A DNA stretch of 64,000 nt from Microbulbifer elongatus (GTDB lineage Bacteria > Pseudomonadota > Gammaproteobacteria > Pseudomonadales > Cellvibrionaceae), in assembly GCF_021165935.1 (NCBI RefSeq), contig NZ_CP088953.1, positions 3,884,501 through 3,948,500 of the forward strand, given 5' to 3'. Positions within the stretch are counted from its first letter, which is position 1, and each line of letters begins with the position of its first letter. Both the position numbers and the translations under genes were made by a program. The notes below the pieces were generated by a model. The model had not been told where the DNA came from, ran no database searches, and worked only from the letters and a program-made list of their open reading frames with translations. Positions 13,618 through 43,304 of this stretch are shown one piece after another.

Positions 13618-16600
13618 TTAGAACTTGCCCACCATATTGATAAACACCCCCTGACTGTCGTAATCCAGGTCCGTCAGATCATCGGAGAAGTCGGTGAAGT
13701 TGTAGCCGATGCCCGCCTTGAAGTTGCGTCCCATCTGTCGGTACAGAGCGAGCAGTGCACCGCTGCGGCTGTCGCCGGCTTCCGGCAGGTCAAGCAGGCG
13801 GCCTTCGATCAGCAGATCCCAGTGATTGACGAAGTGCCAGTCCGCGCGCACTACGTAGAGATGAGCAGTACTATCGAAGAACTCGGGGTCTTCCCGCTCC
13901 ATACTCAGTTGCCCCAGACGATAGGCGTACTTGGCGCCGACAGTCCAGCGCTGGGTGAGATCGTAGTTGGTGTCGACGGAGAAGATGTGACTCTTCTGAA
14001 CAAACTCGATGGCGCTACTGTTACTGCTTGAGGTCACCAGTACCTGGTCGTTGGTGGGTACGTTGTAGAAGTAGGTGTACTTCAGCAATGTGTTCCAGCG
14101 ATCGTTATCCACAGGGCGGTAGGCGTAGCCCATCACACCTTCGGTAAATTTACCGTCGTAGAACTGCCCCGCGGAACTCTGGCTGTCGGAGTAGTTGAGC
14201 TTGCCGACTAAACGCCAGTCCGGACTCATCTGGTAGCTCAGGGTATTTTTCAGTAGCCAGGTCTTGCGCTCGTTTTCCAGTACACTCTGGGGGTCATCCT
14301 CGGTGCCTGCACCCGACAGGGTCTGCATATTGTCGATGCGGTATTCCACCGCGCTCGCCACACGCAGCGCGCCATCGTTAAAGCCCATGCTGGCGCCCAT
14401 GGCGCGGCGCTCGGTTTCGGCACCGGTACGCGGATCTTCCAAAGTACCGGCCTCAAGGCTGGTGCCATAATTCCATTGATCACTGGGCGCCAGGTCCACA
14501 CCCAGCGCGTGGGTCAGGCCGGTGGACACATCCCCGTGGGTGTAGCGCTCTTCGCCGCAGATACTGGTAGTATCGGAGAAGCGGCTGCGGAAACCACTGT
14601 TCAGGTTACCCTTGCGCGCGCGCACCCCGGTATCGGTGCGCTCGTTGTCGAGGGTGTAATTCAGATAGAGATTGGTGCGGTCGGTTACCAGGAAGTCGGT
14701 CCCCAGACGGGCTGCGGTACCGGTGTCACCACCGGACAGTTCGCTGTCGACAGTCAGGCGATCACTTACCCGGTAAGCGCCACCAAAGCCGATACGATTG
14801 TTCTCATCCCGGTTCCCGGAGACTTCTGCGGTGCGCTGCACAAATCCAAACGCATTCCAGTTAGCACCTGAATCGTAGCCTGCCTGGATCGCCACATCGG
14901 TACGCTCCCCCTGTTTCTGGGTCAGTGGGACCACCGGCGAGAGATCTTCACGGGTGTCCGCGCGCGCCGCTGCGGCGATGCGCCAGCGGTCACTCAGACG
15001 ATACCCCAGCTCCACATCGGTGGCTTCCGTCTGCAGGCCGTATTGCTGTTCCTTGCGGTCGGTTTTCAGGCCCACGTCAAAGCGTTCGCCAACAGGCAGG
15101 TTGATGGTTGCACCATATTGCTCGGTTTCGTGGGTGGCCAGCTGGCCAGGGCCGGAGAAACCCGCGTCCCGCTGCTGCGCGTAAACGGACATGGAGCCGC
15201 GCGCGCCTTCAAAGAAGTCGCCCACCTGCATGGCCGCCTCGACCTTGTTGGCACCGGCCTTGGCCTGAGGGTCGATCGGGGCGCTCTGCCCGAAAACACC
15301 CTGTTCAAAGCCACCCTGATTAAAGCTGTAGCCGCCGTCGAGGGAAGACAGACTTTCCAGGGTGTTGCCCTGACTCTCCGCCACTTCCACCTTCATCCAG
15401 GTGCCGGCGGTTTTGCGCAGGGTCAGGTCCACACCGTGCAGGGACGATTCGTTGTCCTCCTCGTCCTGCTGGCTGGCACTGACACCGATGCGCACATGGT
15501 CGCCGGCCCAGTACTGGGCGCGGCCGCCCACTGCAAGGGTGTCGAGGTCGTCGAAGCCCGGCGTGTATTCGTAGCGGGCAACCAGGTACTGTGGATTCCC
15601 GTTATAGGAGCCGTCCTGCACGATCAGATTGTCGTTGGCGATGGCGGACAGCGGACGGTTCAGCAGCACCCGGCCCTGAATGTAATCCACATCGTAATCG
15701 ATCACCGGCGTCAGGTTTTTCACCCCCAGTACCAGGCCGGAATTTTTGTCCCGCACTTCCACCCGCAGGCGCTCGGAGCCGGTGAGAATATCCTGATGGC
15801 GCAGGTAGTAGAGAGAACCTCCGGTTCCGCGGAATTCATCGCGCCCGGCAATGGTGCCGGGCTCCGCACTGAATGCATCCACCTCGAAACGCTTGTCGCC
15901 AAAGTCGGTAACGTCGTCGGTTTCAAAATGGAAATTGGCCCCATACAGCGCACGGTCAATCTGGGCCAGTTCGTTGTCGGTATAAGACGCCTTGAAGTTA
16001 CCCCACAGGCCGTAATCGTCATAGTTCTCCAGCTTGATGTAGAACTTGCCGGAGGTGGGCGCGTCTTCCACTACGGTGGAGTCATCGCCAAAGGTAGGGT
16101 AGTAAAGATCGCTGTCGAGACGACGGAACAGGGCGTCCGGCGTTTTCTCCATAAAGTTGCTAAACAGCTCGTCGATCGGCCCCTCTTCGGTGTCCGCACT
16201 GGCGGACAGACGCCAGCCGTCCCCGAAACTGCCGCTGGTATAAAACGCCAGGCGACCGTCGTAGCTCGCAGAGTTGTCGTAGTGGGTCTGATCCCCGGTG
16301 ACCAGTGCCGCGGGGCCGTTGGTATCGTCGCGGGCGATGGTGAGATCCGCAATGCCCACAGTAAACCAGTCGTCGCTGGTGAATTCCAGGTCCCTCAGGA
16401 AAAGTTCGCCGTTGCCCTGCTCGTCGAGCACCGCCACTTCTACAGTGTGCAGCCCTTTGGCAAAAATTTCTTCCGCGACAAACGCACCGCTGTTGCTGAC
16501 AGGAATCTCGCGGCCGGCCAGCCATACACTATGATTTGAGGGGATATCCGCCCCGTTCACCAGTACTGCATTGCCATTGACCGGGATGTTCTGCTCGGCG

Positions 16601-18882
16601 AGGCGGTTTTCCCCGTAACCCACCAGCAACTCCTGCTCGGTAGTGGTCTCCTGCAGCTGGGGCTCGAAGTTATCCACCAGCCACAGAGTCTGTGGGCGGG
16701 TTTCATCGAAGCGCTGTTTCCAGTCGTATACCCGCAGTACGTATTTCAGTTTTTTCAGCGGTGCCTGGAAGCTGTCAAAGTCCGCTTCCCAATTCCCTTC
16801 GCCATTCTGGTCGAGGGTCACCACCGCCAGAGGTTGGTCGCGCAGGGATTGCGCTTCTTCAAAAATCCGCACCTCGGCGCGGGTGATAAACGAGGGATAG
16901 TTGGTGTAGCGCTTGAATACAACGCGGCTTTCCACCAGCTCGGTCTCCGGATCATCCGCGTAGCGGACGGTGTTCGGGAAAGCGGTGACGTTCAGTCGCG
17001 GCTGCATGGTCTGATTGTCGAAGCGGAACTGGATATTGGCGTTGTCCAGTGCCACATCCGTACAGCGCTGCAGGTCCGCGGAATTCTTGTGCGGGTCGTA
17101 TTCCGGTGCACCGTCAACGGTAATCCGCATCAGGTTCAGCGCATAGGGATTGTGCGCAACCGCCTCCTGTTGCAGGCGTTCGATTTCCAACCGGTCCTGT
17201 TCCGCCAGAATGGCCAGCTCGTCGTAGAGCACCTGCACTTCCACGCGGGCGCCATCCATGTGGATAAAGCCGGTCTGTACCACGTCTTTGGATTCCACAT
17301 AGCCGCGCCCTTCAAACGCTACCTGATCGTCTTCGAGGCCGAGCTTTTCCTGTACCAGCTGCATGGTCTTCCTGGCCCGTGCAGACGACAGCCCTACGTC
17401 ATCGCCATAGACCATGGCCTCGCGCCGCTCCATGCGCTCGTTATCGCTGTAACCGACAAAGCTCAGGCGCACGTTCTGTTTGCCCGCCACTTCGTCCATC
17501 AGGCGCTGCATCTGGGACAGCTGTGCATCGGTGATCTGTGGCTCACCACTGTTCAGGAAAATCGGCGGGACTTCCCCGGTGGGTGACTCGTGCTCGATGG
17601 TGATGGTTTCCGCAGACGCGGCTTCCGGGCAGGCCTGCACGCCATCGGCGGCGGTTTCCAGGAGGTCGTCGTACCAGAACTCCACTTCCACACGGCGGTT
17701 CAGAGAGCGTCCCTTGGCGGTATCGTTGGCGGCAATCGGCTGAGTCGCCCCCTTGCCGCTGCTGGTCACCATGTAACCCGGCAGATTCAACTGATCTGCC
17801 ACTGCCAGCGCCACCCGCCGCGCTTCTGCGCGAGACAGCGCCATCTGATCGTCGTACAGCTCCGCGGGCCCTTCCGGCAGGGCACCACCGTCAGTATGAC
17901 CCACAAAGTGAATGGTCAGATTCGGCTTATCCTGCAGGGTATTGCGCACCTCCTGAATACGGCGCACGAAAGGCATTGGTAAATCGGCCTGCCCCGGTTG
18001 CAGCCGCAGCGGAGATACCAGATTTTTGAGACGCGCACGCTGATCGGAACCTGCGGTATAACGCAGCTTACACACGGTTTCCTGACGGCAGACCTGTACG
18101 CGATTCAGTTGCAGGGCCTCGGCGCGACGTTGGGCATCGCGCGCTTCCTGGTCCTGCTCGAAATAGCGCACCGCCAGCTCCACCCGCCGGTTCTGTTCGC
18201 GCCCTTTCTCGGTGATATTTTCTGACAGGGGCTCGCTGTCTCCGCGCCCCTCCACCAGGATGGCTTCCTCTGGCAGTTCCAGCGCGGTTTGCAGGTAGTC
18301 CGCAACCAGCTGGGCACGAGCCTGGGTGAATGCGGCTTTATCCGCGTATTCCGCCAGTTCATCGTCATTCAGCGGGTGGCTGTCAGTATGACCGGTAACG
18401 ATCAGCTGCATTTCATGGGCAGACTCCAGCTCCGCGAGCTTTTCGCGCAACTGTTCCACCAGATCCGGATCGATTTCATCTTCTACTGCACGGAACGGGA
18501 GCGGAGGCAGGATGTTGTTTTCCACAACCGCCTGTTCCGGCGCGATAAAGGATTCCGCATCCTGTACCCACAACTGGCCCGCAGCGGGAATCAGCGTGGT
18601 TTCCGTATTGCTGCCCAATGGTTTTTCTGTGTACTCGCCAGTGGACTCAGTCTCTGGTCCAAGCCCGGGAATCAATTGCCACCAGGCGGCTTCCTGTTCC
18701 GATTGCGTATCTATTTCCTGCGCAGTAGCGGGGACAATAGGTAACAGTGCGAGAGCCAAAACTGCATTGCGGACTTTGACTGTGAGTTCCGCTGAGCTGG
18801 ATCCCGGCATTCGCCGGGATGACGATGTCGTCGGTATCCAGTTTTTGGCGATGACACGGGCTAATTTTGAAGGACGGAACAT
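13618..18882 (-). CDS. Large OmpA-family outer-membrane protein with C-terminal barrel, partner of the giant DUF11 protein
   Basis: A 1754-aa secreted protein. Three OmpA-like segments follow one another at about residues 125-245 (VTGHTDSHPLNDDE ... REQNRRVEL), 300-405 (FVGHTDGG ... RSLNRRVEVEF) and 450-555 (FVGYSDNERMER ... ARVEVQV). OmpA domains of this kind bind peptidoglycan. A middle region of beta-sandwich character follows, and from about residue 850 to the end the sequence alternates as in outer-membrane barrels and finishes in Phe (MVGKF). Its ATG overlaps the stop of the giant DUF11 gene by one base (TGATG) with GGAGG 9 nt upstream, so it is translationally coupled. A REP palindrome is embedded in frame just before the signal-peptide core. 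Function unknown; anchoring or export of the giant protein is my inference. Confidence 0.85.
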   Translation of the reverse strand: MFRPSKLARVIAKNWIPTTSSSRRMPGSSSAELTVKVRNAVLALALLPIVPATAQEIDTQSEQEAAWWQLIPGLGPETESTGEYTEKPLGSNTETTLIPAAGQLWVQDAESFIAPEQAVVENNILPPLPFRAVEDEIDPDLVEQLREKLAELESAHEMQLIVTGHTDSHPLNDDELAEYADKAAFTQARAQLVADYLQTALELPEEAILVEGRGDSEPLSENITEKGREQNRRVELAVRYFEQDQEARDAQRRAEALQLNRVQVCRQETVCKLRYTAGSDQRARLKNLVSPLRLQPGQADLPMPFVRRIQEVRNTLQDKPNLTIHFVGHTDGGALPEGPAELYDDQMALSRAEARRVALAVADQLNLPGYMVTSSGKGATQPIAANDTAKGRSLNRRVEVEFWYDDLLETAADGVQACPEAASAETITIEHESPTGEVPPIFLNSGEPQITDAQLSQMQRLMDEVAGKQNVRLSFVGYSDNERMERREAMVYGDDVGLSSARARKTMQLVQEKLGLEDDQVAFEGRGYVESKDVVQTGFIHMDGARVEVQVLYDELAILAEQDRLEIERLQQEAVAHNPYALNLMRITVDGAPEYDPHKNSADLQRCTDVALDNANIQFRFDNQTMQPRLNVTAFPNTVRYADDPETELVESRVVFKRYTNYPSFITRAEVRIFEEAQSLRDQPLAVVTLDQNGEGNWEADFDSFQAPLKKLKYVLRVYDWKQRFDETRPQTLWLVDNFEPQLQETTTEQELLVGYGENRLAEQNIPVNGNAVLVNGADIPSNHSVWLAGREIPVSNSGAFVAEEIFAKGLHTVEVAVLDEQGNGELFLRDLEFTSDDWFTVGIADLTIARDDTNGPAALVTGDQTHYDNSASYDGRLAFYTSGSFGDGWRLSASADTEEGPIDELFSNFMEKTPDALFRRLDSDLYYPTFGDDSTVVEDAPTSGKFYIKLENYDDYGLWGNFKASYTDNELAQIDRALYGANFHFETDDVTDFGDKRFEVDAFSAEPGTIAGRDEFRGTGGSLYYLRHQDILTGSERLRVEVRDKNSGLVLGVKNLTPVIDYDVDYIQGRVLLNRPLSAIANDNLIVQDGSYNGNPQYLVARYEYTPGFDDLDTLAVGGRAQYWAGDHVRIGVSASQQDEEDNESSLHGVDLTLRKTAGTWMKVEVAESQGNTLESLSSLDGGYSFNQGGFEQGVFGQSAPIDPQAKAGANKVEAAMQVGDFFEGARGSMSVYAQQRDAGFSGPGQLATHETEQYGATINLPVGERFDVGLKTDRKEQQYGLQTEATDVELGYRLSDRWRIAAAARADTREDLSPVVPLTQKQGERTDVAIQAGYDSGANWNAFGFVQRTAEVSGNRDENNRIGFGGAYRVSDRLTVDSELSGGDTGTAARLGTDFLVTDRTNLYLNYTLDNERTDTGVRARKGNLNSGFRSRFSDTTSICGEERYTHGDVSTGLTHALGVDLAPSDQWNYGTSLEAGTLEDPRTGAETERRAMGASMGFNDGALRVASAVEYRIDNMQTLSGAGTEDDPQSVLENERKTWLLKNTLSYQMSPDWRLVGKLNYSDSQSSAGQFYDGKFTEGVMGYAYRPVDNDRWNTLLKYTYFYNVPTNDQVLVTSSSNSSAIEFVQKSHIFSVDTNYDLTQRWTVGAKYAYRLGQLSMEREDPEFFDSTAHLYVVRADWHFVNHWDLLIEGRLLDLPEAGDSRSGALLALYRQMGRNFKAGIGYNFTDFSDDLTDLDYDSQGVFINMVGKF
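18785..18845. repeat. REP-type element inside the 5' coding region of the OmpA-family gene
   Basis: The REP core at 18799-18824 is identical at 25 of 26 positions to that at 3990-4015. Here it lies inside the open frame and encodes the segment around SSSRRMPGSSS, between the start codon and the hydrophobic signal-peptide core. Confidence 0.8.
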
Positions 18883-21800
18883 CACCGGACACCTCCCTGA
18901 TCTTCACTTCCGATCATGCGGTTAATACTGCGTTTGAACCCGTCCAGCACATTGCCACGCTCGGGCGGCGCACCACGGCGCCAGAAAATTTCGGTTTCGA
19001 TATTCAGCGGGTAGCAGCAATCCAGTGCCGCCCAATCCTCGGCGATGCGCGCCTTGATGGTCTCCAGTCGCGCTTCCACCAGTGCCGGATCTTCGTTCTC
19101 CGCCAGGTAGGACAGTCGCAACAGCGATGGAGCCTCTTCCAGGCGCTCCAGCAACAGCTCGGTGCGGGACTGCCACTGCGGACGCAGCTCGGTGGACCCC
19201 GGTTCGAACACCGCCTCTGCCAGATCCAGGCGCACTACCCGGTGCAGGCTGGTACCGAAGTTGAACTCGAGCACTTTGCCTCGGGTGGCACGCTGAACCC
19301 GCGGGTTTTCCGTGGTCAAGCGGTAACCGCTTGGCAGGCTGCGATCGTCCAGCTTCAGCACGAAGTTGGAACCGCGATCCGGATTTGGCACCGCCGCACA
19401 GGTAATGTGGAAGCGCCCGTGGGCATCGGCGGTCGCCTTGAGACCATTGGCGGTCACCACACGGGCCCCGGGTACACCACCCTCACCCGGATCCTGATAA
19501 CCGTTCAGGTTGGTATCGTCGAAGACCTTGCCGATGACATCGGTACAGTCAAAGGTCGGGTCCGGTACCACACGCACGGTGGCCGATGCCTCACCGGAGG
19601 TCTGCTGACCGGAAAGTTCGTTAAACATCCGTGCACGGTTGACGTACTCCCCTTCGCCCACACCGGAGCCCACCACCAGCAGTAGTTTCATGCTGTGCGT
19701 CTGCTCCGGCTCGGCACGCAGGTGCGGCCACTGCAACTGCAGTCCGTTCACCTGCGGCTCCACGGGCATCCCGTCCAGGTTTGCGGAACCAGCCACGTAC
19801 TTGAAGCCCGCAGGGAAATAATCCACCAGTTGCAGGTCGGTCAGAGGCACCGGCAGCGAGTTGCTGAAGGTGATGGTGTAGGGCACCAGCTGGCTGCGTG
19901 TCACATTCAACATGGCCGCGGTCTTGGTCAGTGCAAGTGCGCCTTCCAGTTGCGGGTCCAGTGCAATGTGGTTATTGAACAGCTGGCTACTACCGGGCTG
20001 ATTGGAATCGTCCAGATTCAGTCGCAGGTAGTAGTCCGTCTCGCTACTGCGGGCGTCGGCGTCGATCGGCGGAGGCAGAATCGACAGCTGCACCTCACAG
20101 TGATCCGGGGTACCCGGGATCATGTCTGCGGCGCTGCCGATACAGGCGGCCACATCAAAGCTGCCGGTGTCCACGCCAGTCTGCGGCGGAATGATCTGGG
20201 ACGGCCCGGACACATAGTCCTCATTCGGCACATCCACTTCGATCAGGTAATCCCCGTTGACCGCACAGGCCGCACTACTGAAGTTCACGTCGAACTTGTA
20301 GAAGCCACCGGTGAGGGTGACCTGATTCTGCTGCTTGGCATCGTCAAAACAGCTATCCGGCAGCGGCTGCCCACTGGATGCACCCAACATACGCACGCGC
20401 GCGCCGTTGACCGGTGCACGCAGCACGGAATCATAAATCACACCGTTGGGCGTAATCGGCAGATTCAGGTTCTGCGGGTTGGCCCCGGACTCCACATAGA
20501 TATTCTGAATCTGCTGCGGGCCGTTGGTGTAATCGGAGCTGGCGGTACCCAGTGACGCCGTGTTATCCCCTGCATTGGGGGCAAGATAGCGCAACTCATA
20601 GCTGGCACCGGCCATGTCCGCACCGTCCATATTCGGCACCAGGCCATCGAAAACGAAGTAGCCGTTGTCATCGCTCTGGACGGTTTCCAGCAGGGCATTG
20701 TTGAAGTACAGCTCCACGTTCCAGTTCACCAGCAGCTGCTCTTCCGCATCCGCCGTTTCACTGAAGTTGACATCGTGCCAGAGGTAACCGGAAAGGTTCG
20801 CAATCCCCGGGGTACCACCGATATCGATCGACACGGTGGCTTCGTTATACATTGCGGGATCATTCCACTTCACCTGCGCAGTGTTCACCACCGGGTACCC
20901 CATGGCCAGGTTTTCACCCAGCTTGGCTTCAAAGCGCAGGGTGATGGTTTCCTGGGGCTGCAGGCCTCCGTAATTGGTGCTGTAGTCCACGGTGATCAGC
21001 GGGCCATCGACCATTACGCCATCCGGCTGGCCGTTCAGACGTGCGGAATCTTCCACGTACGTCAGCACACCCTCACCGGCGACCAACAGATCGTCGTAGA
21101 TACTCACCAGGCTCGCGGGCACGGCGCTGATGTTGGTAACGCGGACGATGTATTCCAGCACCTTGCCGGACTCCGCCGCGCCGCCGCCAACAACCGCCAC
21201 TTCCTTGGTGATGGAAAGCTGCTGGGCATCACCGACCACCACCTCAGTGGGCTGGGCACCATTGCTGCTGTTGCCATCCGCATCGGTCAGGGTCAGCGGC
21301 AGTTCGAGACTGTACACATTGCCCTGGTTGCTGATGATGGTGCCGCGCTCGGTATCGGCGTTGACCATGACATCGAACACGATGGTGGCGGTTTGCGCGG
21401 TGGTCAGAACACCTTCACCTTCCGCTGGCAGCGGTGGAGTCAGGTCGTCTGTACTGATCGCGATACCGGAAATCAGCGGTGAATCTTCCCCATCATCCGC
21501 GACGGAAACACCATTGAGCATGGTACTGCCGGCAACGTAGGTCGTGTGTTCCGGCACCAGATCCACAAAGCGCGCCTCGGTGGCATCCTTACCGCCCATG
21601 TTGCTGACGGTAATGGTGTAGCGCAGCACGTCTTCCGGGTCGACGATACCGGCGGTCATGTTATCCACCACCAGCTCCACGGTTTTCTGTGCGCGGATCA
21701 GCGGCACATTACCGACGATATCGATGGTCGGATCGTCGGCGACTTCGGTGGTGGGGTCGTCGGACGGCTTCTCGTCCAACGGCATATTTTCGCCACCCGC

Positions 21801-33080: not shown

Positions 33081-33121
33081 GCAACAAAACAACCACCCGG
33101 TGCAGTATCCGGGCGGTTGTT
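33081..33121 (-). terminator. Bidirectional-looking terminator after the AgmX-like gene
   Basis: A 13-position stem with one mismatch (33088-33100 with 33109-33121) starts about 14 nt after the AgmX-like stop. On the minus strand it is followed by TTGTTGC after GGTTGTT; on the plus strand by TTTTT. It should end the ExbBD/TPR operon, so the giant gene probably has its own promoter in 32862-33080. I could not identify a convincing -35/-10 pair there. Confidence 0.7.
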
Positions 33122-33135
33122 TTTTGATCCACTTT

Positions 33136-34515: not shown

Positions 34516-34524
34516 AAACGCTCA

Positions 34525-35100: not shown

Positions 35101-35690
35101 GGCGCATCCCCCAGGGAAATATCGGGAAAGAGTTCCATCTTCTCAGGTGTTGCATCCGGATCCGGTGCACTACCGTCTTCCGGTACCGGCATAACCTCCG
35201 CACTGCGCACGGTGTCCATGACCCCCACAAGGTGTTCATAAGCCACATCCGGTTCCATCAACAGGGTGGAGTCGGTTTTATCCGGATAGGTCTCCTTGAT
35301 TCGCAGCAGGTACTCCCGCAACTGAGCCAGATCGTAGACCTCATCCGTTGGGGGAATAACCGGCAGGCCATTCTCGTCCACCGGGACTTCACCCTCGCCC
35401 TCGGCCTGCTCGACCTCGCCCTCCTGCTGGTTCAGGTTCGGGAAACGGGCGAGGACCTTTTCGCCATCGCTGATTTCCAGCACATCTTTTCGAACCACCA
35501 CCTCAAGGGATACGCCAGGGTCTTCCGATGCGCCACCGGCGCCGGTTGGCATATTCAGCTCGAGAATGGTCACTCGGGAAAACACCGCAGAAACCAGCAG
35601 GAACGGCACCAGTACCACCATCAAGTTCAGGAAGGCGGTGATGTCCAGTTCCGGCGCTTCTTTGGCTCTACTGTGACGCCTGCTTCTCAT
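35097..35690 (-). CDS. ExbD/TolR-family subunit with Asn in place of the proton-carrying Asp
   Basis: A 197-aa protein with one membrane helix (LDITAFLNLMVVLVPFLLVSAVF, about residues 15-37 in two halves around Asn22) and an acidic periplasmic domain. Aligning ITAFLNLM to the VTPFIDVM of E. coli ExbD puts Asn22 (codon AAC) where Asp25 should be. Asp16 lies just outside the helix. The start overlaps the ExbB stop by one base (TAATG). Likely a partner in a mixed ExbB-ExbD1-ExbD2 motor rather than an independent proton carrier. Confidence 0.88.
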   Translation of the reverse strand: MRSRRHSRAKEAPELDITAFLNLMVVLVPFLLVSAVFSRVTILELNMPTGAGGASEDPGVSLEVVVRKDVLEISDGEKVLARFPNLNQQEGEVEQAEGEGEVPVDENGLPVIPPTDEVYDLAQLREYLLRIKETYPDKTDSTLLMEPDVAYEHLVGVMDTVRSAEVMPVPEDGSAPDPDATPEKMELFPDISLGDAP

Positions 35691-36481
35691 TACGCAGATT
35701 CCGGTTTGGCGCTGTTGTCGGAGCTTGCTTCAGTATCGGCGTCGTCATCGGCATCCGCTGCTTCCGCCTCTTGTGCCTGTTTGGTCTGTTCGATATCACG
35801 GTTCACCGGCTTTTCTGCCGGCGCGTCTTTCGCAGATTCACTGCGGCGACGGGTACCGGAAGACATGATATTCAGAGCCTTGACGGAAACCATTTCCAGG
35901 CTGTCGACGATCTGTCCGGTCAGGGAGTTCAGCAGCGCATGAACGATCAGCAGCGCAATACCGACCATCAGACCGAACGCGGTGGTGTTCATCGCAACAG
36001 AAATACTGGCGGAGAGCAGGTCGGCCTTTTCCGCCGGGTTGGCATTGGCTACCGCCGTAAAGGCTTCAATCAGACCCATAATGGTACCGAGCAGGCCGAG
36101 CAGCGTAGCAATATTGGAGCCAAGCGCCACATAGGGGGTGCGCTTTTCCAGCTGCGGAATGGTCTCCATGATGCTTTCTTCCATGGCGATCTCGATATCT
36201 TCACGACGCCGTACAGCGCCCTGACGCTCGAGCCCCATGGCGAGGAGACGGCCCACGCCGGTATTGTCGTCTTTGACCAGGTTGCGGGCGCGATCGAAGT
36301 CACCGGTTTTGAGCACAGGCTGCAGTTTTTCCCAGACCGCGCGGTTGGTGTGACGCTCATAAATGAGGCGAACATAGCGCTCAATGGCTACCGCGGCGCC
36401 GAGCGCGAATACCACCAGAATGGGGTACATGAATGCACCACCAGTCTGAAAAAACGCGATTACGCTGTTAAAGAAATCCAT
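35690..36481 (-). CDS. ExbB/TolQ/MotA-family proton-channel subunit
   Basis: A 263-aa inner-membrane protein with three membrane segments: GGAFMYPILVVFALGAAVAIER near the N-terminus, then LGSNIATLLGLLGTIMGLIEAF and AFGLMVGIALLIVHALLNSL. Between the first two lies the cytoplasmic loop typical of ExbB/TolQ. The last ~60 residues form an acidic, low-complexity cytoplasmic tail that ordinary ExbB lacks. It would make the pentameric channel in which ExbD helices sit. AGAGGATA precedes the ATG at 36481; a GTG one codon upstream is less well placed. Between this gene and the 99-aa gene is a 102-bp gap. Confidence 0.92.
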   Translation of the reverse strand: MDFFNSVIAFFQTGGAFMYPILVVFALGAAVAIERYVRLIYERHTNRAVWEKLQPVLKTGDFDRARNLVKDDNTGVGRLLAMGLERQGAVRRREDIEIAMEESIMETIPQLEKRTPYVALGSNIATLLGLLGTIMGLIEAFTAVANANPAEKADLLSASISVAMNTTAFGLMVGIALLIVHALLNSLTGQIVDSLEMVSVKALNIMSSGTRRRSESAKDAPAEKPVNRDIEQTKQAQEAEAADADDDADTEASSDNSAKPESA

Positions 36482-36583
36482 CACTTATCCTCTTGGTTTT
36501 CTTTCTCGGGTCCGCGGGTACTTCCGCTTTGCCTTCAGGTTTTTACTTTGTGTGTATTTTCAAGCCCCGCATTACTGCGACGC

Positions 36584-36883
36584 TCAATCCTCCGGGAGGC
36601 TAAGTTCGTAGAACTCAAGCTCCCTAGAGAAAACTTCTTTGTCCAGTGGCTGCAGACGTGGGTCCAGCAGGCTGGAATTGAGCCCGCTCTCCACTCCTAC
36701 TTCGGAACTCTTCCAGGGGACAATATAAAGAGACTTGGGCGCCTCCTCATTGCCGATAATGGAAATACCGGAAAGCTCTTTCACTTCGGTATCCACTTTC
36801 TTCTCACTCTCTTCCTGGGCGACAGCGGCGAGGGAGCCCAGCAATACAGGAAATAGCAGCAGGAATTGCCGTACGCTACTCAT
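36584..36883 (-). CDS. Small secreted protein of unknown function in the ExbBD/TPR operon
   Basis: A 99-aa protein with a signal peptide (MSSVRQFLLLFPVLLGSLAAVAQ) and a mature part of about 76 residues with the segments ELSGISIIGNEEAPKSLYIV and FSRELEFYEL. I do not recognise a family. Its ATG overlaps the stop of the upstream TPR lipoprotein by one base (TGATG), so it is made together with that protein and with ExbB. It is probably a periplasmic component of the same machine. Confidence 0.8.
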   Translation of the reverse strand: MSSVRQFLLLFPVLLGSLAAVAQEESEKKVDTEVKELSGISIIGNEEAPKSLYIVPWKSSEVGVESGLNSSLLDPRLQPLDKEVFSRELEFYELSLPED

Positions 36884-37479
36884 CAATTCGCTCTCCGCTT
36901 GAGGTCGGCCACCCAGATGGCAACCTTGCGATCTTCAGGTTCATATTTCAGGTACTGCTCAAATTGTGCGAGTGCACAATTCACATCCTGAAGATAGAGG
37001 TCACACAGAATGCCGAGATTCTTGATCAGGGGCAGACTGTCCGGATGCGCCTGCAGTGCTTCACTGTAGGTTTTTCTGGCTTCATCGAAACGCCCCTGAT
37101 GACGATAAAGTACACCCAGTTCACTACTGGCAACGGGATCCAGTGGAGCTGCGCGCAGTGCCTCCAGGAAGGATTCCTCTGCGTGCTTCTCGTCACCAGT
37201 TTTGAAATACGCAATTCCAAGGTTTACATAGGGTGCAGACAGGCGCTGTTCGCGTTCGACAACCGACTGCAACAGTTCAATGGCCTCAGGGTAGCGCTCG
37301 CCCTGCAGAAGCTCCACGGCCTGGGTAAAGTCCCGATTGACACCGCCGGAGACTTTTACATTCATCGGGTCCACCGGCCGACTGGAGGTTTGTGGACCAC
37401 TGGCACAGGCACCGAGTAGCAGCATGGCACCACACAGCGCAGCTCCTACAACCCGGCGCATATTGCAGACAGTTTCCAT
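36883..37479 (-). CDS. TPR-repeat lipoprotein (198 aa)
   Basis: The signal peptide ends in a lipobox (LLLGAC) placing the mature N-terminus in a lipid anchor, presumably outer membrane. The rest is a run of TPR helices: PEAIELLQSVVEREQRLSAPYVNLGIAYFKTGD, then LDPVASSELGVLYRHQGRFDEARKTYSEAL, with further repeats to the end (LKYEPEDRKVAIWVADLKRR). The ATG at 37479 overlaps the upstream stop by one base (TGATG). TPR lipoproteins act as scaffolds; here it may couple the energised complex to the outer membrane. Confidence 0.88.
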   Translation of the reverse strand: METVCNMRRVVGAALCGAMLLLGACASGPQTSSRPVDPMNVKVSGGVNRDFTQAVELLQGERYPEAIELLQSVVEREQRLSAPYVNLGIAYFKTGDEKHAEESFLEALRAAPLDPVASSELGVLYRHQGRFDEARKTYSEALQAHPDSLPLIKNLGILCDLYLQDVNCALAQFEQYLKYEPEDRKVAIWVADLKRRAN

Positions 37480-40400
37480 CAACCCTGCCCCTCCTCAGTG
37501 GTATTTTCTGCGATGACTGCAGGCTCCGGCTTCATCGGGCTTGACGGTTCCTTTGTTTCACCGAGTTCTTCACCCACCGCTTCGTCAGCGCCCTCTGTAC
37601 TCTCTTCCGCCACCTCGGGTACTGGCACGATGGTCATTACGATATTGCCGGCATCCTCGGGGCGCTCGTAGCGCGCGGGCACCAGCCCGGCCAGCTGGCC
37701 GATACTTTTCGCAACCCAGTTGTTGTAAATGCCCGCAGCCATCAGGTCGATGTTCTTTTCGTGCACGGAAATAGCGCGCTCTTCGAACGGATAGATCTGC
37801 TCTTCCAGCGCCAGCTCGTATTCTTCCAGTTCCAGTGCGCTGAGGTTGGTTGGGCGCTCAGAATCCTTCAGGGCGCGGCTGAAATGCAGATAGATTTCGC
37901 CGAGATAGTAGGTGGCCGCCGCGGTGACATCCGCCACCTGATAGTCGATCAGGTCACTGAAGGCTGCCGTGGCCGCTTTCATACGCGCGCGCTTGGTATT
38001 GAGGTTTTGCTCCAGCGGCGCCACCAGTGCGACCTCCGCAAACGAGGCGAACCTGGGCTCCGCCAGTTTCAATGCCGCATTACCGCCCAGGTAGCGCGTG
38101 CGATCGTTGCGCTCATCGCCACCGCGCAGCTCGATACGGACAATATCGTCCAGGGTGTTGAAATAGGCTTTCTGGTTACCGGTATTGAGATAGATGTCAG
38201 CAATTTTCTGACGGGTCTCCAGTGCCGGCTCCATCGGGTGCGGGAACAGCTTGACGTAGCGGTTGAGCACCGTCAGCGCTTTGTCATAACTCTTGGCAGC
38301 GCTATATAGATCGGCCGCCTGAGTCAGCGCTTCCCGACGTACATCGTCGTCTTCCGATTCGCGCTCGATACGCTCAAACTCTGCGGCCGCCAACAGGAGT
38401 TGGCCGCTCTCCTGATACACCACCGCCAGCTTTTTGGTGACCTCTTTCTGCAGTTTGTGCTCCGGGTGATTACTGCGGAAGGCCTTCAGTACTTCTGCAG
38501 CACGGGCCCAGTTTTCCAGCTGGATCAGAGACGCTGCGGCGTCGTACTCGGCGGTGGCGAGAATGGTCGCCCCCGGCGCTGCGTTGCGAATGCGCAGGAA
38601 ATGCTCGGCGGCCGCCAGGTGATCGTCGGCCTTCCGGGCCTGATCGCCCTGCTGATAGATGGCACCGGCCAGGTTGTCCACCAGTGCCGCCCGATCTTCG
38701 GCATCGGTTGCCGTCAGGTTCAGCGCCGCGCGATAGCCCGCTTCCGCGTCCACGTACAGCTCGGTATCAAAGGACGCATGTGCCACCAGCAACCAGGCGG
38801 AACGCTGAATCTGCTGATCCGCCCCCGGGAATTTTTCCAGCAGAAGGCGACCGTTCTGGATGGCTTCGGGGTAGCTTTTCAGCTTATACAGATCATCCAC
38901 GGCCCCCAGCAGAATCTGCGGTGCCTTGGCGTGCTGCGGGAAGGTTTCAGCAAAAGCCAGAGAGGATCGGATAATTTCCTTCTGGATCGCCACTTTATCA
39001 GCGCTGCTGGCCTCGGCGAGATCTTTGGCCAGATACTCACGGTAGGCAAATACCGCAGCATAGCCCGCCTCACTGGTGTTCTCATTGGCCGCGTGATTCG
39101 GGTAGTGATAGGCGGTGCGCTCATACTCGCGGGCGGCGTTCAGGAAGTCTTTGTTTTCCAGCATCAGCCCCGCCAGCTGATAGTTGATTTCCGGCGCTTT
39201 GGCTTTATCGGCAAATGACGTGAGGTAGCGACGGTACCAGTGAATCGCCTCCACATAGTTTTCGCCGCGTTTTTTGGCGAACTCTTTATCCTTCGGCTTC
39301 ACGTTCTGGTACGCCGCGTGATAGTGGCTGGCGAGATCAATCAGATTCGTCTGCAGGAATTCCACTACCGTGGCGTATTCCGCAATTTCAAACACAGTCC
39401 AGTATTCGGCATCCAGAGCATAGGTATTGGCAAAGGCCTTCTTGGCCTCCAGCACCAGCCGGGGGAAGCCACCCTTCTGGTAAATTTCGATCACGCGAAT
39501 GGAAAAGTCTGGCGCCACTTTGTGCAACGGATTGCGCTCCACAAAGGTGTCATAGGATTTGGCGGCATCCTGGTAACGACGCTTATCCAGGTAGTATTCA
39601 CCCAGGTGGCTGTACACGTAGGATTCATACCCTCGCGCGCCCTTGCGGGTAAAGTAGTCCACAATGGAGTCGGCACCACCCTGATAGGAGAAACTCAAAC
39701 TGACGACGCGGAAGGTATCCTCGACGTGCTTGCGCTCCGTCTCATTGGTCTGCTGCTCGAAGTCATAGCCCTGCGCCACTTTGTAATCCAGCATGCGGAC
39801 GAAATCGTCCAGCGCCATTTCATACATATCCTGCTTGAACAGCGCCCAGCCGCGCTTGTACAGCGCCAGCTCATAAAAACTGGAAACTTCTCCCATGGCA
39901 ATCACCCGGCCATAGGACTCTTCCGCGTCGAGAAACTTCTTGCGGGTAAAGTAGTATTCACCGAGTCGGAAGTAGGCTTCATCCAGATGGCGTGACGCCG
40001 GGTATTTGGCAACCAGCTGCCGCAGTACCGCCACCGCTTCATCCACCTCACCGGTTTCTTCATATGCGCGGGACAGCTGGTACATAACCTGGTCATTGCG
40101 CTCATATTGCGGGTACTGCACCAGCAGTTTCTTATACAGTGCAATAGCCTCTCGCGCATTGGCCGCCAGCAGGGCATCCGGGTCGTCGCCGGGCACGGAA
40201 ACTTCCGCTTCACTGGCAACGCCGCTGATATCCATTGCACCACTGGCACGGGCTTCGAAATCGGACTGACTTTCTCCGCTACTGGCGGTGCCACTATCCA
40301 AAGCAGCTGGTGTACCCTCGGCAGATGCCTGAACCCCGGCCACCTGTGGCGCATCCAGCGCACCCATGGCCGCAGTGGTCTTTTTACGGGCACTCAGGTT

Positions 40401-40745
40401 GGCCGAAGCGATTTCCTCGGCCGACAGGATTCGAGTCTCGGTACTGCTCGGCAGAATACCCTCTTCCGCTCGGTGGGCCTGCTTGATCTTCAGGTCGGCT
40501 ATACGGCGGATGGCTTCCGGGGTCAGCGCCGTCTCCGGGGTTTCCTGCAGGTATTTCTGGTAACTGGCCAGCGCCTTCTCCAGGCTACCCTCGATATGGG
40601 TTTCCTGAATTTCAATATCCACACGCTGCAGGCTACCGATGGTCTTGCCACTGTGGCTGGCACAGGCGCTGAGCAGTAACGCGGCAGAGGCCGCTGTTGC
40701 CAGCCCCAGATGATTGAATACGGCCGAGAGACGCGTTTTATTCAT
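37479..40745 (-). CDS. Large TPR-repeat lipoprotein (1088 aa)
   Basis: A lipoprotein with lipobox LLLSAC (Cys ~28), an N-terminal segment with a low-complexity Ala/Gly/Ser-rich stretch, then many TPR units over most of the length. Examples are ALYKKLLVQYPQYERNDQVMYQLSRAYEETG, DEAYFRLGEYYFTRKKFLDAEESYGRV and AEPRFASFAEVALVAPLEQ. The C-terminus is acidic and rich in Glu, Thr and Pro. It overlaps the upstream TPR gene by eight bases. The repeats resemble the YbgF/TolA-associated and BamD-type superhelices, but it is much longer. Probably a periplasmic scaffold for the ExbBD/AgmX-like complex. Confidence 0.88.
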   Translation of the reverse strand: MNKTRLSAVFNHLGLATAASAALLLSACASHSGKTIGSLQRVDIEIQETHIEGSLEKALASYQKYLQETPETALTPEAIRRIADLKIKQAHRAEEGILPSSTETRILSAEEIASANLSARKKTTAAMGALDAPQVAGVQASAEGTPAALDSGTASSGESQSDFEARASGAMDISGVASEAEVSVPGDDPDALLAANAREAIALYKKLLVQYPQYERNDQVMYQLSRAYEETGEVDEAVAVLRQLVAKYPASRHLDEAYFRLGEYYFTRKKFLDAEESYGRVIAMGEVSSFYELALYKRGWALFKQDMYEMALDDFVRMLDYKVAQGYDFEQQTNETERKHVEDTFRVVSLSFSYQGGADSIVDYFTRKGARGYESYVYSHLGEYYLDKRRYQDAAKSYDTFVERNPLHKVAPDFSIRVIEIYQKGGFPRLVLEAKKAFANTYALDAEYWTVFEIAEYATVVEFLQTNLIDLASHYHAAYQNVKPKDKEFAKKRGENYVEAIHWYRRYLTSFADKAKAPEINYQLAGLMLENKDFLNAAREYERTAYHYPNHAANENTSEAGYAAVFAYREYLAKDLAEASSADKVAIQKEIIRSSLAFAETFPQHAKAPQILLGAVDDLYKLKSYPEAIQNGRLLLEKFPGADQQIQRSAWLLVAHASFDTELYVDAEAGYRAALNLTATDAEDRAALVDNLAGAIYQQGDQARKADDHLAAAEHFLRIRNAAPGATILATAEYDAAASLIQLENWARAAEVLKAFRSNHPEHKLQKEVTKKLAVVYQESGQLLLAAAEFERIERESEDDDVRREALTQAADLYSAAKSYDKALTVLNRYVKLFPHPMEPALETRQKIADIYLNTGNQKAYFNTLDDIVRIELRGGDERNDRTRYLGGNAALKLAEPRFASFAEVALVAPLEQNLNTKRARMKAATAAFSDLIDYQVADVTAAATYYLGEIYLHFSRALKDSERPTNLSALELEEYELALEEQIYPFEERAISVHEKNIDLMAAGIYNNWVAKSIGQLAGLVPARYERPEDAGNIVMTIVPVPEVAEESTEGADEAVGEELGETKEPSSPMKPEPAVIAENTTEEGQG

Positions 40746-42792
40746 TGTCCGCGCCCTCCCCTTTTGGTGCCGGCGCTTCCAGCTCCGGAGGGTTATCCGT
40801 AGGCAGTGGCTCGCTCCGGGAATCCGGTGCAGCCTGCTTCATCTGCTCCACCTGACGCTGATACTCTTCAACCTTGCGCGCATCCGCACGGCGCTCCTGC
40901 AATTCATTGGCCCGGTCGTAACTATCGGCCAGGGCAAAGCGCGCTTTAATCTGGTAACTCTCCAGCTGCCCACGGCGCTCTTCCAGTTCACTGATGGCCA
41001 ACTGCTCCAGCATACGCCCCTGGCGCGACATCAATTGATCAATACGCTCCTGGGCCCGGTTCAGGCCTGCCCGCAGGCTGGCGATCTGATCGGTATAGCC
41101 TTCGTAACTGTGGGTCGCGGCCTGACGGGTACGCACATACCGCTGGTAGCTTTCCTGCAGCGTCGCGATGACCTCATCCAGCTCCTGCAGGTTTTTGTAC
41201 GCTTTGGTGAGTCGATCATCGAACTCTCGGGACAGACGAAACTTCAGCACACCTTCCAGGCGCGCGATGCGATCTTCGGTTTCCTCGCTCTGCAGGCTGG
41301 GGTTGTAGTCGAGAATGTCGCGAATCTGCTGCAGGATCAGGCGGGATTCGGTTTCATCGCTTTTCGCGAGAAGCTCGGGGCGACGGTTCACCAGCAGGTT
41401 CTCGATCCGCATGGCGAGGCGCTGGCGCTGCTCCAGCCGCATCTTGATGCGCGCGTCAATCTGGCGGAACTGTACATCCAGCCCCGGAAGAATCGGTTCG
41501 TAGTAGCTGCGACGCAGGGCAATAATTTCGTCGAAGGCGTCGAGACTTTGCAACCAGTCTTTGTTGCGTTCGAACAGGTCGTTCAGATCCTGGTAATTGC
41601 GCAGAAACTCCTGATAGTCATTGGACGCCATCAGGTCGAGCAGGTAATGGGTTTCCGGTGCATCCGGCAGCTTGCGCAGCTCTACCACCCAGTTCTTCAC
41701 CTGGCTGGCCTCCTTGCGGCGCAGCGCTTCGAGCAACTTGCCTTCGCGGATACTGTTGATGGACCGGGTAAGTACGTCCACCTGATTGCCAAACAGATCC
41801 AGAGCCTGGCCATAGTTCACCGCAGCGGTACTGTGCACTTCCAGTTTGCCGTACGCATAGGGTACGGCGAGCATGGCTTCCTGCACCGCCGCATCGGTGG
41901 ATTTGCGCTGCTTCAACAATTGCCAAGGCACCAGTGCGCGGTCGTAACGGCCCGCATTGGCCTCCACCCAGCCGGCGCCGAGCAGCGCCTGATTGGAAAA
42001 GGGCCCACTCAGCTGCACGCGGTCAAAATAAGTGCGTGCGCGCTGGTACTCCTCGGCCTCCATCAGCTGGAAACCGAGCAGCAGGTTGGTTTTGTCCTGC
42101 AGAGCGCGCATGGCATCGCCACGGCCGGCCTTGCGCCCGAGACCATCCAATTCCACGACACCCCGCTCGGTTTCACCGGCCTTCAATAGCGCGATGCCGA
42201 GGTTGTACTCCACAAACCCCGCGAGGGATTTTTCGCCCTTCAGGTCTTTTAACAGCTCAACCGCCTCTTCAAAACGCCCCAATTGCATGTACACCCGGGC
42301 GCGCAGAAACTGTTCATCGGCGCGGACACGCTCCGGCACACGCCCTTCGATCAGCTCCAGGGCGTGTAGGGCATTGGCAAACTGCTGCTTGTGGTAATGA
42401 ATCTTGGCCAGGCGATAGGCCGCTTCATTCTTGATAGGTTGCGGAACGTCACCCTGCAGCACCTGTTCCATCGCACGGCCGGCTTCCAGATGCATCCGGT
42501 ACGAAAGCTCAAGATCCCCTACGGCAAACTCCGCCTGACCAAAATGCATGGAGAAGGGGTCGAGCTCCGGGTCATCCAGCAGGCGAAACTGCTGCAACTC
42601 GGTATCCAGCCTGGTGATCGCATCGAAATACCTGTCCTGATGCGCATTGAACAATGCTTCGCCAAAGAACAGGTCGCGAAGGTTATCAGTATGCAGTGCG
42701 CTCGGATCTTCGGGCGTTTTGGCCTGCACAGGCGCGGCGCACAGCACAGTCAGTGCTGCACCGGCAACCGCGCGGGCCAGACGGGAATTCAT
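40738..42792 (-). CDS. Periplasmic TPR/coiled-coil protein (684 aa)
   Basis: A secreted protein with a signal peptide (MNSRLARAVAGAALTVLCAAPVQA). It continues with TPR-like helices over the first ~400 residues (FGQAEFAVGDLELSYRMHLEAGRAMEQV, ALHALELIEGRVPERVRADEQFLRARVYMQLGRFEEAVELL), then a long coiled coil (about 400-650, LEQRQRLAMRIENLLVNRRPELL, YKNLQELDEVIATLQESYQ) and an acidic Pro-rich tail. It lies 2 bp downstream of the 169-aa gene and overlaps the next TPR gene, so it is part of one operon. No enzymatic motif is visible. Confidence 0.85.
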   Translation of the reverse strand: MNSRLARAVAGAALTVLCAAPVQAKTPEDPSALHTDNLRDLFFGEALFNAHQDRYFDAITRLDTELQQFRLLDDPELDPFSMHFGQAEFAVGDLELSYRMHLEAGRAMEQVLQGDVPQPIKNEAAYRLAKIHYHKQQFANALHALELIEGRVPERVRADEQFLRARVYMQLGRFEEAVELLKDLKGEKSLAGFVEYNLGIALLKAGETERGVVELDGLGRKAGRGDAMRALQDKTNLLLGFQLMEAEEYQRARTYFDRVQLSGPFSNQALLGAGWVEANAGRYDRALVPWQLLKQRKSTDAAVQEAMLAVPYAYGKLEVHSTAAVNYGQALDLFGNQVDVLTRSINSIREGKLLEALRRKEASQVKNWVVELRKLPDAPETHYLLDLMASNDYQEFLRNYQDLNDLFERNKDWLQSLDAFDEIIALRRSYYEPILPGLDVQFRQIDARIKMRLEQRQRLAMRIENLLVNRRPELLAKSDETESRLILQQIRDILDYNPSLQSEETEDRIARLEGVLKFRLSREFDDRLTKAYKNLQELDEVIATLQESYQRYVRTRQAATHSYEGYTDQIASLRAGLNRAQERIDQLMSRQGRMLEQLAISELEERRGQLESYQIKARFALADSYDRANELQERRADARKVEEYQRQVEQMKQAAPDSRSEPLPTDNPPELEAPAPKGEGADNE

Positions 42793-42794
42793 GC

Positions 42795-43304
42795 TTACCA
42801 GTCCTTGAAGTTGATGGCGGACTGGTTGCCGGCAATCTGGATCTCAACGAACTTGGGACCCACCGCTTTTTCCACGCTATAGCTGGCGGTCGCACGGTAT
42901 TCCTTGCCGGATTTGGACTTTCCGAAATAGGTGACTTCGAGGGGGTGAGTCCCGGTCTGCACGTTGGCAGTATGGATACGCTGCACACCGCCGAGCTGCA
43001 GGGCTTCAATTTCACGGTAGGTATACAGGTGGTGGGCGACAACCTGATTATTGAGCTTTACTTCGACGGACTCGAGGCTGAACTCGGCACTGTCAGGCAG
43101 AGAGACAAACAGCGCCACCTGCGTATTGGAGGGAAACAGCAGTTTTTCTTCCAGACGATTGAGTTCGGAGGTGAGGCTGATCACATCCTTCTTCACATCC
43201 TGAATCTGCTCATCCAGGCCGCGAATCTCTTCACGACTGACTTCCTGCGCATTGGTCATCACCGCAAGCATCAGCAATACGGTCGCCAACAGAATTCTGC
43301 ACAT
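42795..43304 (-). CDS. Periplasmic coiled-coil protein, first gene of the ExbBD/TPR operon
   Basis: A 169-aa secreted protein: signal peptide MCRILLATVLLMLAVMTNAQ, then a short coiled coil (EIRGLDEQIQDVKKDVISLTSELNRLEEKL in two heptad runs), then a beta-rich domain (EFSLESVEVKLNNQVVAHHLY ... GKEYRATASYSVEKAVG). I do not recognise a family. The ATG at 43304 is chosen because AAGGGAT precedes it and it starts a clean signal peptide; an in-frame ATG at 43340 adds 12 residues with no better signal. Downstream genes follow within 2 bp or overlap. Confidence 0.8.
   Translation of the reverse strand: MCRILLATVLLMLAVMTNAQEVSREEIRGLDEQIQDVKKDVISLTSELNRLEEKLLFPSNTQVALFVSLPDSAEFSLESVEVKLNNQVVAHHLYTYREIEALQLGGVQRIHTANVQTGTHPLEVTYFGKSKSGKEYRATASYSVEKAVGPKFVEIQIAGNQSAINFKDW

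What the first reader, a model, noticed from the sequence alone, without database searches (positions are those of the whole stretch)
13618..43304. Candidate new trans-envelope machine: ExbB/ExbD/ExbD/AgmX-like motor with TPR scaffolds and a giant DUF11 protein plus OmpA-barrel partner
Eleven genes on one strand combine (a) an ExbB/TolQ-type channel, two different ExbD-type subunits and a TonB-like protein with a long cytoplasmic coiled coil and an AgmX/PglI-type end, (b) three TPR proteins (two lipoproteins), a coiled-coil periplasmic protein and a small secreted protein, and (c) a 4659-aa DUF11 surface protein coupled to a 1754-aa OmpA-barrel protein. ExbBD/TolQR/Agl systems are known to convert proton-motive force to periplasmic work, and AgmX/PglI domains are known from Myxococcus gliding. 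The combination here, with a dedicated giant cargo, looks like a distinct system for export, anchoring or movement of the giant protein. The link between the two halves is inferred from adjacency.
Basis: partly seen in the sequence, partly recalled or inferred. Interest (0 to 1): 0.88.

Follow-up and report, generated by a model that had tools for sequence, protein, structure and literature searches.

The report
Envelope motor with dedicated giant surface protein
A set of eleven neighbouring genes in a marine bacterium pairs a proton-driven cell-envelope motor, related to the one that lets Myxococcus glide, with its own giant surface protein and outer-membrane barrel, and the same set recurs in distant bacteria, which suggests what this motor of unknown purpose acts on.

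Summary
In detail: eleven minus-strand genes (13618-43340) of a Microbulbifer genome. The first nine are not a new machine; their content matches the Agl-Glt "core complex" described in 2011 in Gammaproteobacteria, function unknown. The coupling is what is new. One clade of that core (core-1; GltG 440-514 aa with a long cytoplasmic coiled coil) is tied to a giant DUF11 protein and a ~1,750-aa OmpA-barrel protein. The giant lies directly downstream of GltG in 71 of 80 core-1 loci; three Desulfobacterota loci are exceptions, but in one of those genomes giant and barrel lie upstream. Core-1 and barrel occur in exactly the same 10 of 46 Alcanivorax-family genomes and the same 47 of 48 Microbulbifer genomes. 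Thirty-five mapped loci of the ordinary core (short GltG) have neither on the same strand in the stretch read. Six giant+barrel pairs without adjacent motor genes suggest the motor is not needed for export. Best reading: a proton-driven surface-transport machine acting on its own displayed giant. The genetic unit is near certain; the mechanism is inferred (about 0.5). A new variant of a known kind.

The parts
42795..43340 (-). P0009: secreted coiled-coil protein, first gene of the operon
   Evidence: ortholog first in 54 of 57 core-1 loci with full upstream stretch and standard order and in most core-2 loci
40738..42792 (-). P0008: periplasmic TPR protein, position of GltC
   Evidence: Luciano 2011 gives M. 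xanthus GltC as 673 aa with TPR
37479..40745 (-). P0007: large TPR lipoprotein, position of GltD
   Evidence: core-1/core-2 split in tree
36883..37482 (-). P0006: small TPR lipoprotein, position of GltE
   Evidence: weak NCBIfam GltE match, 37.6 bits, cut-off 225
36584..36886 (-). P0005: small secreted protein with LYIVPWK-type motif
   Evidence: homologs in core-2; exact motif in 49 of 80 core-1 rows and 4 of 32 core-2 rows
35690..36484 (-). P0004: ExbB/TolQ/AglR-type channel subunit
   Evidence: Pfam MotA_ExbB 82.3 bits; TolQ structures
35097..35690 (-). P0003: ExbD1; Asn22 (35625-35627) at the place of the ExbD proton-carrying Asp
   Evidence: Pfam ExbD 47.9 bits; alignment to ExbD 7ajq/6tyi; Asn in 82 of 86 core-1 rows by pattern, 3 more by eye, 1 truncated
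34525..35100 (-). P0002: ExbD2; Asp29 (35014-35016) kept
   Evidence: Pfam ExbD 58.2 bits; alignment; Asp in 87 of 87 core-1 rows
33136..34515 (-). P0001: GltG/TonB-like protein: cytoplasmic coiled coil (34021-34515), one TM helix (33946-34014), proline/lysine-rich linker, AgmX/PglI C-terminal domain (33151-33423)
   Evidence: NF033768 66.4 bits over cut-off 40; alignment A1; length 440-514 in 80 of 80 core-1 loci; TM and coiled coil by eye
18882..32861 (-). P0011: giant DUF11/isopeptide-domain surface protein, 4659 aa
   Evidence: homolog directly downstream of GltG in 71 of 80 loci
18975..19244 (-). Conserved C-terminal domain of the giant, predicted beta-alpha-beta-alpha-beta
   Evidence: AlphaFold2 core pLDDT 74-90 in blocks of ten, mean of whole piece 59.6; OmpA-like match inconclusive
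13618..18885 (-). P0010: OmpA-barrel protein: three OmpA domains (about 17206-18495) then a large C-terminal barrel (about 13621-16488)
   Evidence: Pfam OmpA, three stretches; AlphaFold2 all-beta C-terminal part, mean pLDDT 66.3, pTM 0.47

Best explanation
The eleven genes encode one trans-envelope machine. Shown by comparison: nine genes are a clade (core-1) of the Agl-Glt core complex, kept and apparently transferred together with a giant DUF11 protein and its OmpA-barrel partner. Inferred: an ExbB channel with two unlike ExbD subunits, one bearing the proton-carrying Asp and one Asn, lets protons in and drives GltG. GltG's C-terminal domain reaches through the peptidoglycan, guided by the TPR proteins, and repeatedly pulls or pushes the barrel/giant complex in the outer membrane. 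The giant stands on the surface with its conserved C-terminal domain at the base, and the OmpA domains of the barrel hold the base to the peptidoglycan. The output is movement or tensioning of a surface adhesin along the cell (surface transport, perhaps gliding or sliding), as Agl does with Glt or Nfs in Myxococcus.
For: Unit: giant directly downstream in 71 of 80 loci; same 10 of 46 and 47 of 48 genomes; giant and barrel still next to the core, but upstream, in a Desulfobacterales genome; in 3 of 10 Microbulbifer genomes both outer flanks of the window are gone while core GltD and barrel keep their places; barrel and GltD distances correlate r=0.88, GltD-GltG 0.91, 28 genomes. Motor type. Acting on a displayed giant rather than exporting it: six giant+barrel pairs without motor genes in the stretches read (L041/L042; L214-L218), five of these six genomes having no GltD match at all (G482 has another core elsewhere, G333 is 75% complete). 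Force bearing: barrels from core-1 genomes have 2-3 OmpA stretches in the seven scanned, motor-free ones 0-1 in six. Precedent: Agl moves Glt or Nfs complexes over the surface (PMC3858216, passages) and GltG is proposed to make TonB-like contacts with outer-membrane proteins (PMC5349195, passages).
Against: No direct evidence of contact between the motor and the giant or barrel. Published statements on Microbulbifer motility are mixed: one species is motile without flagella, three compared ones are non-motile, although 47 of 48 genomes carry the unit. No polarity or steering genes were looked for. The barrel model is of low confidence. The core-1 loci were found with two short GltG peptides and the best 80 of 188 kept by similarity to the window, and the genome samples overlap, so the counts are not independent.
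Confidence: 0.5

Rival explanations
1. Energised exporter: the motor powers passage of the giant through the barrel (a proton-driven secretion system in the manner of T9SS PorL/M with SprA), and the giant is only cargo.
For: Giant lies first downstream of the motor, barrel next; the barrel is very large (one search lists 46 strands of 3 or more residues from model residue 243 on, at low confidence); a TonB-like protein can energise outer-membrane proteins.
Against: Six giant+barrel pairs without adjacent motor genes, five in genomes without any GltD match, suggest that export works without this motor, though another motor could stand in; NCBIfam T9SS models score far below cut-off (PorW/SprE 40.3 against 250).
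Confidence: 0.2
2. Static or tensioning tether: the complex braces outer membrane, peptidoglycan and a surface layer, Tol-Pal-like, without directional movement.
For: OmpA domains in the barrel protein; Tol/ExbBD-type motor; DUF11/isopeptide repeats suit a stiff layer or stalk; one of the two ExbD subunits lacks the Asp, which could mean a weak motor.
Against: Closest relatives with known function are transport machines (PMC3858216, passages); Tol-Pal models are far below cut-off (tolQ 46.1 against 221).
Confidence: 0.17
3. Adjacency without function: motor and giant/barrel sit together by shared history only.
For: Both parts exist apart: 35 mapped cores without giant and six pairs without adjacent motor.
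Against: Co-occurrence in identical genome sets (32, 33), adjacency across distant taxa, survival of adjacency through gene-order change and turnover of the flanks.
Confidence: 0.05

Closest known systems
Agl-Glt core complex (Group B genes gltC, D, E, G and aglR, Q, S) of Gammaproteobacteria, Geobacter and Fibrobacter (Luciano et al. 2011, PMC3169522)
   Same: Motor plus TonB-like protein plus three TPR proteins in one genomic region; function unknown; duplicated in several Gammaproteobacteria.
   Different: Core-1 is a separate clade with a long cytoplasmic coiled coil on GltG and a dedicated giant and barrel; the parts and passages read of that paper name no such partner.
Myxococcus xanthus Agl-Glt gliding machine and Agl-Nfs spore-coat machine
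   Same: One ExbB-type, two ExbD-type subunits, GltG with AgmX/PglI end, TPR proteins, outer-membrane output.
   Different: The outer-membrane part differs (giant DUF11 plus OmpA-barrel instead of GltA, B, H, K); GltG has a coiled coil and no FHA match; one ExbD has Asn where the review PMC9389320 (passages) states a conserved aspartate for both AglQ and AglS.
Bacteroidota GldLM-SprB gliding and T9SS
   Same: Proton-driven motor acting on a giant surface adhesin (GldLM and SprB are named so in PMC9389320 passages; size of SprB recalled).
   Different: No T9SS component passes an NCBIfam cut-off; would be convergence.
Giant DUF11 + short barrel pairs without adjacent motor (G061, G391, G632, G482, G668, G333)
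   Same: Same giant C-terminal domain and same barrel family (G061 barrel 45% to the window; the other five 43-47% to G061).
   Different: Barrel 1,215-1,410 aa with 0-1 OmpA domain; no motor genes in the stretches read.

Membership tests
Agl-Glt core complex | MotA/TolQ/ExbB-type channel (AglR) and two ExbD/TolR-type subunits (AglQ, AglS) | tested here: met
   Pfam 82.3, 58.2 and 47.9 bits, all over cut-off
Agl-Glt core complex | GltG: single TM helix, periplasmic linker, AgmX/PglI-TonB-like C-terminal domain | tested here: met
   NF033768 66.4 bits against 40 and tonB_Cterm 31.3 against 27.1; Pfam TonB_C 22.3 bits, just under its 24.6 cut-off; TM and linker by eye
Agl-Glt core complex | Passing the NCBIfam equivalog models of Myxococcus GltG, GltE or GltJ | tested here: not met
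   GltG 59.2 against 650, GltE 37.6 against 225, GltJ 27.1 against 450: these look like Myxococcus-level models, so it is not filed as a Myxococcus gliding machine
Agl-Glt core complex | TPR proteins GltC, GltD, GltE | tested here: inconclusive
   Same number, similar sizes for GltC and GltD (GltE shorter), secretion signals and place; no direct comparison with M. xanthus sequences was made
Agl-Glt core complex | All core genes in one genomic region in non-Myxococcales | tested here: met
   Same nine-gene order in 54 of 57 core-1 loci with full upstream stretch and, with exceptions such as L056, L067 and L068, in core-2 loci
Agl-Glt core complex | One additional gene without homolog in Myxococcales | tested here: inconclusive
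   Two extra genes here (P0005, P0009); which one Luciano et al. meant could not be seen (their Figure S1 is a supplement)
Myxococcus gliding machine | Group A genes gltA, B, F, H, I, J, K | not tested
   No NCBIfam match to them among those listed for the eleven proteins, except weak GltJ at the shared C-terminus; the rest of the genome was not searched
Myxococcus gliding machine | Drives movement on surfaces | not testable with these tools
   Needs experiments
Type IX secretion / GldLM-SprB | Components recognised by T9SS models | tested here: not met
   PorW/SprE 40.3 bits against 250 is the best; PorE model 14.3 against 600
Tol-Pal / ExbBD-TonB | TolQ, ExbB, TolR, ExbD equivalog models | tested here: not met
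   tolQ 46.1 against 221, exbB 29.1 against 206.2, ExbD and tolR models at most 22.4 bits against 127-216. The YbgF model is passed by the TPR protein P0007 (95.9 against 90.1)

The most novel reading that the evidence does not exclude
A cross-phylum, horizontally moving gliding or surface-conveyor machine: an Agl-type proton motor with an asymmetric ExbD pair drives a giant DUF11 adhesin, held in a very large outer-membrane barrel, along the cell surface. As far as the papers seen here tell, it would be the first Agl-Glt machine outside the Myxococcota with a named cargo, and a further motor-plus-giant-adhesin solution beside Bacteroidota gliding.
Probability: 0.3. Interest if true: 0.9.

Novelty: new variant of a known kind. 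Interest (0 to 1): 0.72.

Why it matters
The Agl-Glt core of Gammaproteobacteria was described in 2011 as a protein complex of unknown function and in 2013 as a possible basal transport machinery (PMC3169522, PMC3858216; passages). For one clade of it the genomes now name the partner: a giant surface protein and its outer-membrane barrel, kept together across distant lineages and into another phylum. That makes the old question directly testable in cultured, harmless hosts (Microbulbifer, Alcanivorax). Because the window genome also carries a core without giant, the two paralogs can be compared in one cell.

Tried and rejected

Limits: bit-score lines between core-1 and other cores and between long and short barrels were drawn after seeing the gaps (class: GltD 844 to 712, barrel 1,283 to 1,158; one barrel in between in kind, G538, is cut by a contig end and covers query 500-1641). 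Order and class searches scored only 2-3 candidates per genome, so second copies can be missed. Core-2 loci were read at most about 10 kb past GltG, some much less (L258 about 0.7 kb).
Full report
What is there. The window lies in a complete 4.2-Mb genome. Its close relatives among named genomes are Microbulbifer (98% GltG identity to Microbulbifer sp. HZ11). Eleven minus-strand genes follow one another from 43340 to 13618: P9 - GltC - GltD - GltE - small - ExbB - ExbD1 - ExbD2 - GltG - giant - OmpA-barrel (Pfam; NCBIfam). The Glt names for the TPR proteins are given by place and type, not by direct comparison with Myxococcus sequences.

The nine-gene half is known. Luciano et al. 2011 (PMC3169522; abstract, two of eight parts of the main section and passages read) describe a 'core complex' of gltD, gltE, gltG, gltC and aglR, Q, S in one genomic region in several Gammaproteobacteria, one Betaproteobacterium, Geobacter and Fibrobacter, plus one extra gene, with unknown function. 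Wartel et al. 2013 (PMC3858216; passages) call it a possible basal transport machinery, standing alone in many Gammaproteobacteria. Here, largely the same gene order recurs in 35 cores without giant that I mapped (23, 12; a few lack, split or shuffle genes, e.g. L056, L067, L068, L070). One of them is in the own genome (L043); 35 of 48 Microbulbifer genomes have such a second GltD. I call these core-2 and the window type core-1.

The coupling is new in what I could search. (a) Genus: of 48 Microbulbifer genomes, 47 have core-1 GltD and 47 the barrel, the same 47; the miss is 80% complete. In 44 both are on one contig, always on the same strand with the nearest barrel 13-29 kb downstream; in 3 they fall on different contigs. 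(b) Alcanivorax family: of 46 genomes, exactly the same 10 have core-1 GltD (661 bits or more; next 496) and the barrel (1,899 or more; next 98); 8 on one contig and strand, 2 on different contigs. Nineteen others have only the other type of GltD (29 of 46 with any match). (c) Class: of 369 genomes, 14 have core-1 GltD (844 bits or more) and 13 of them the long barrel (1,283 bits or more); no genome has the long barrel without core-1. The fourteenth, G641, is 79% complete and has a giant directly after GltG at the contig end. Seven more genomes have a short or cut barrel (834-1,158 bits) and no core-1 GltD. (d) Order: of 194 genomes, the five Microbulbifer and one Alcanivorax (G160) have both; G061 has a short barrel with giant and no GltD match; no further genome has a barrel match above 220 bits apart from a second, distant one in G144 (469 bits).

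Named genomes. A scan of the 84,980-species collection with a core-1 GltG alignment gave 188 relatives, of which the best 80 were kept: 28 titled Microbulbifer and 52 others. A giant homolog starts within 1.5 kb downstream of GltG in 71 of 80 (26 Microbulbifer, 45 others, among them Alcanivorax, Aestuariicella, Thiohalomonas, Gallionellales, Nitrosomonadales and Thiobacillus; that the last three are Betaproteobacteria is recalled). Of the other nine, L085 and L102 end too soon; L074 has the giant after broken frames; L109, L113 and L118 have unrecognised frames cut by the contig end; L132, L138 and L139 (titled Desulfuromonadales or Desulfobacterales) have none there. In L132 and L139 the barrel lies directly upstream of P9, and in the genome of L139 a 3,458-aa DUF11 giant lies before the barrel. 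So the halves stay together although the order changed. Of 57 loci with full upstream stretch, 54 have all eight other motor genes in order. Of 50 non-Microbulbifer genomes searched (52 less two left out by the limit), 43 have a window-type barrel at 400 bits or more, one only a distant match, six none (the six are drafts of 2.1-3.2 Mb).

Controls. None of the 35 core-2 loci has a giant or large barrel on the same strand after GltG in the stretch read; L059 has a DUF11 frame on the other strand, and L054 and L062 have small OmpA-domain proteins nearby. Flanks: in 10 Microbulbifer genomes the upstream moa/pyruvate-kinase flank of the window is kept in 5, some downstream flank in 7, and neither in 3 (G211, G221, G225), while GltD and barrel keep strand and spacing in all ten (the genes between were not mapped one by one in these ten). 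GltD tree: 38 core-1 and 23 core-2 rows fall on two sides of one branch (SH-aLRT 99; quick method; several core-2 rows are long branches), with the two Desulfobacterota rows inside the proteobacterial ones, as expected from transfer of the set. Barrel and GltD distances correlate at r=0.88 (28 genomes), close to GltD-GltG at 0.91; nearest neighbours agree in 20 of 28.

What sets core-1 apart. GltG is 440-514 aa in all 80 core-1 loci and 308-357 aa in 34 of 35 core-2 loci (195 aa in L068). The extra length is a cytoplasmic coiled coil before the membrane helix (alignment A1; by eye). The barrel carries 2-3 OmpA stretches in the seven proteins scanned from core-1 genomes, against none or one in six motor-free ones (L214, L216, L217 one; L215, L218, L041 none). 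Motor-linked giants read whole range from 1,610 aa (G491) to 4,659 aa (window), but share a C-terminal domain of about 100 residues. It is also found in the motor-free giants and is predicted as beta-alpha-beta-alpha-beta; an OmpA relation is plausible by eye but not proven.

The motor-free pairs. Six giant+barrel pairs have no motor genes in the stretches read (L041/L042, L214-L218; 6.8 to 40 kb). Five of the six genomes (G061, G391, G632, G668, G333) have no GltD match at all; G482 has another core elsewhere. G333 is 75% complete and its contig is short.

The stator. By alignment to solved ExbD, ExbD2 keeps the proton-carrying Asp and ExbD1 has Asn there (weak matches, E above 0.007). By pattern, core-1 ExbD2 has Asp in 87 of 87 rows and ExbD1 has Asn in 82 of 86, with three more Asn by eye and one truncated; in core-2 ExbD1 has Asn in 30 and Ser in 3 of 34, one row differs and appears to carry Asp, and ExbD2 has Asp in 34 of 35 by pattern and one more by eye (a few genomes occur twice). 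A review states a conserved aspartate for both AglQ and AglS of Myxococcus and that their pairing is unknown (PMC9389320, passages). If right, these motors have an unlike pair with one proton site.

How it most likely works. The ExbB-ExbD1-ExbD2 motor drives GltG, whose end domain crosses the peptidoglycan as proposed for Myxococcus (PMC5349195, passages), and acts on the barrel/giant complex. The extra OmpA domains would hold the loaded base to the cell wall. Since giant and barrel occur without the motor, the motor probably moves or tensions a displayed giant rather than exporting it. Each of these steps is inference; the conserved unit is what is shown. Export and static tethering remain open.

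Biology. Motility in Microbulbifer is unevenly reported: M. weihaiensis is called motile without flagella, some members are said to slide or to have flagella, three compared species are non-motile (PMC12472934, passages). A surface-conditioned movement or attachment role would fit, but nothing here shows it.

Verdict. A real, widely conserved genetic unit: a new, cargo-linked variant of the Agl-Glt core. Interest 0.72.

Noticed in passing
L043:16892-19528 (own genome, about C1:992.9-995.5 kb); also in L047, L053, L055, L059, L062, L065, L069, L258, L262-L266, L269: In 15 of 35 mapped core-2 loci an ApbE protein (FMN transferase family; own copy Pfam 267.9 bits) and/or a protein with a Tat-like start and no Pfam match lies beside the core, a possible clue to what core-2 serves.
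   Followed up: partly
L048-L049 (Microbulbifer, G236) and G217:C7:347424-368658: Barrel in two tandem copies downstream of one motor in both genomes, in G236 with a giant before each; G160 (Alcanivorax nanhaiticus) has a second giant after the barrel (L040).
   Followed up: partly
G437:C2:460780-463992: A barrel-like match lies in an open frame of 11,777 aa, perhaps giant and barrel fused.
   Followed up: no
L045:8593-14340: A 1,915-aa protein with DUF11, SdrD_B, OmpA and a barrel-like match in one chain: the split giant+barrel may derive from, or have given rise to, a fused form.
   Followed up: no
window 35625-35627 and 35014-35016: Asn/Asp asymmetry between the two ExbD subunits in core-1 and nearly all core-2 rows.
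   Followed up: partly
window 52308-58955: Another large minus-strand open frame of 2,215 aa, not examined.
   Followed up: no
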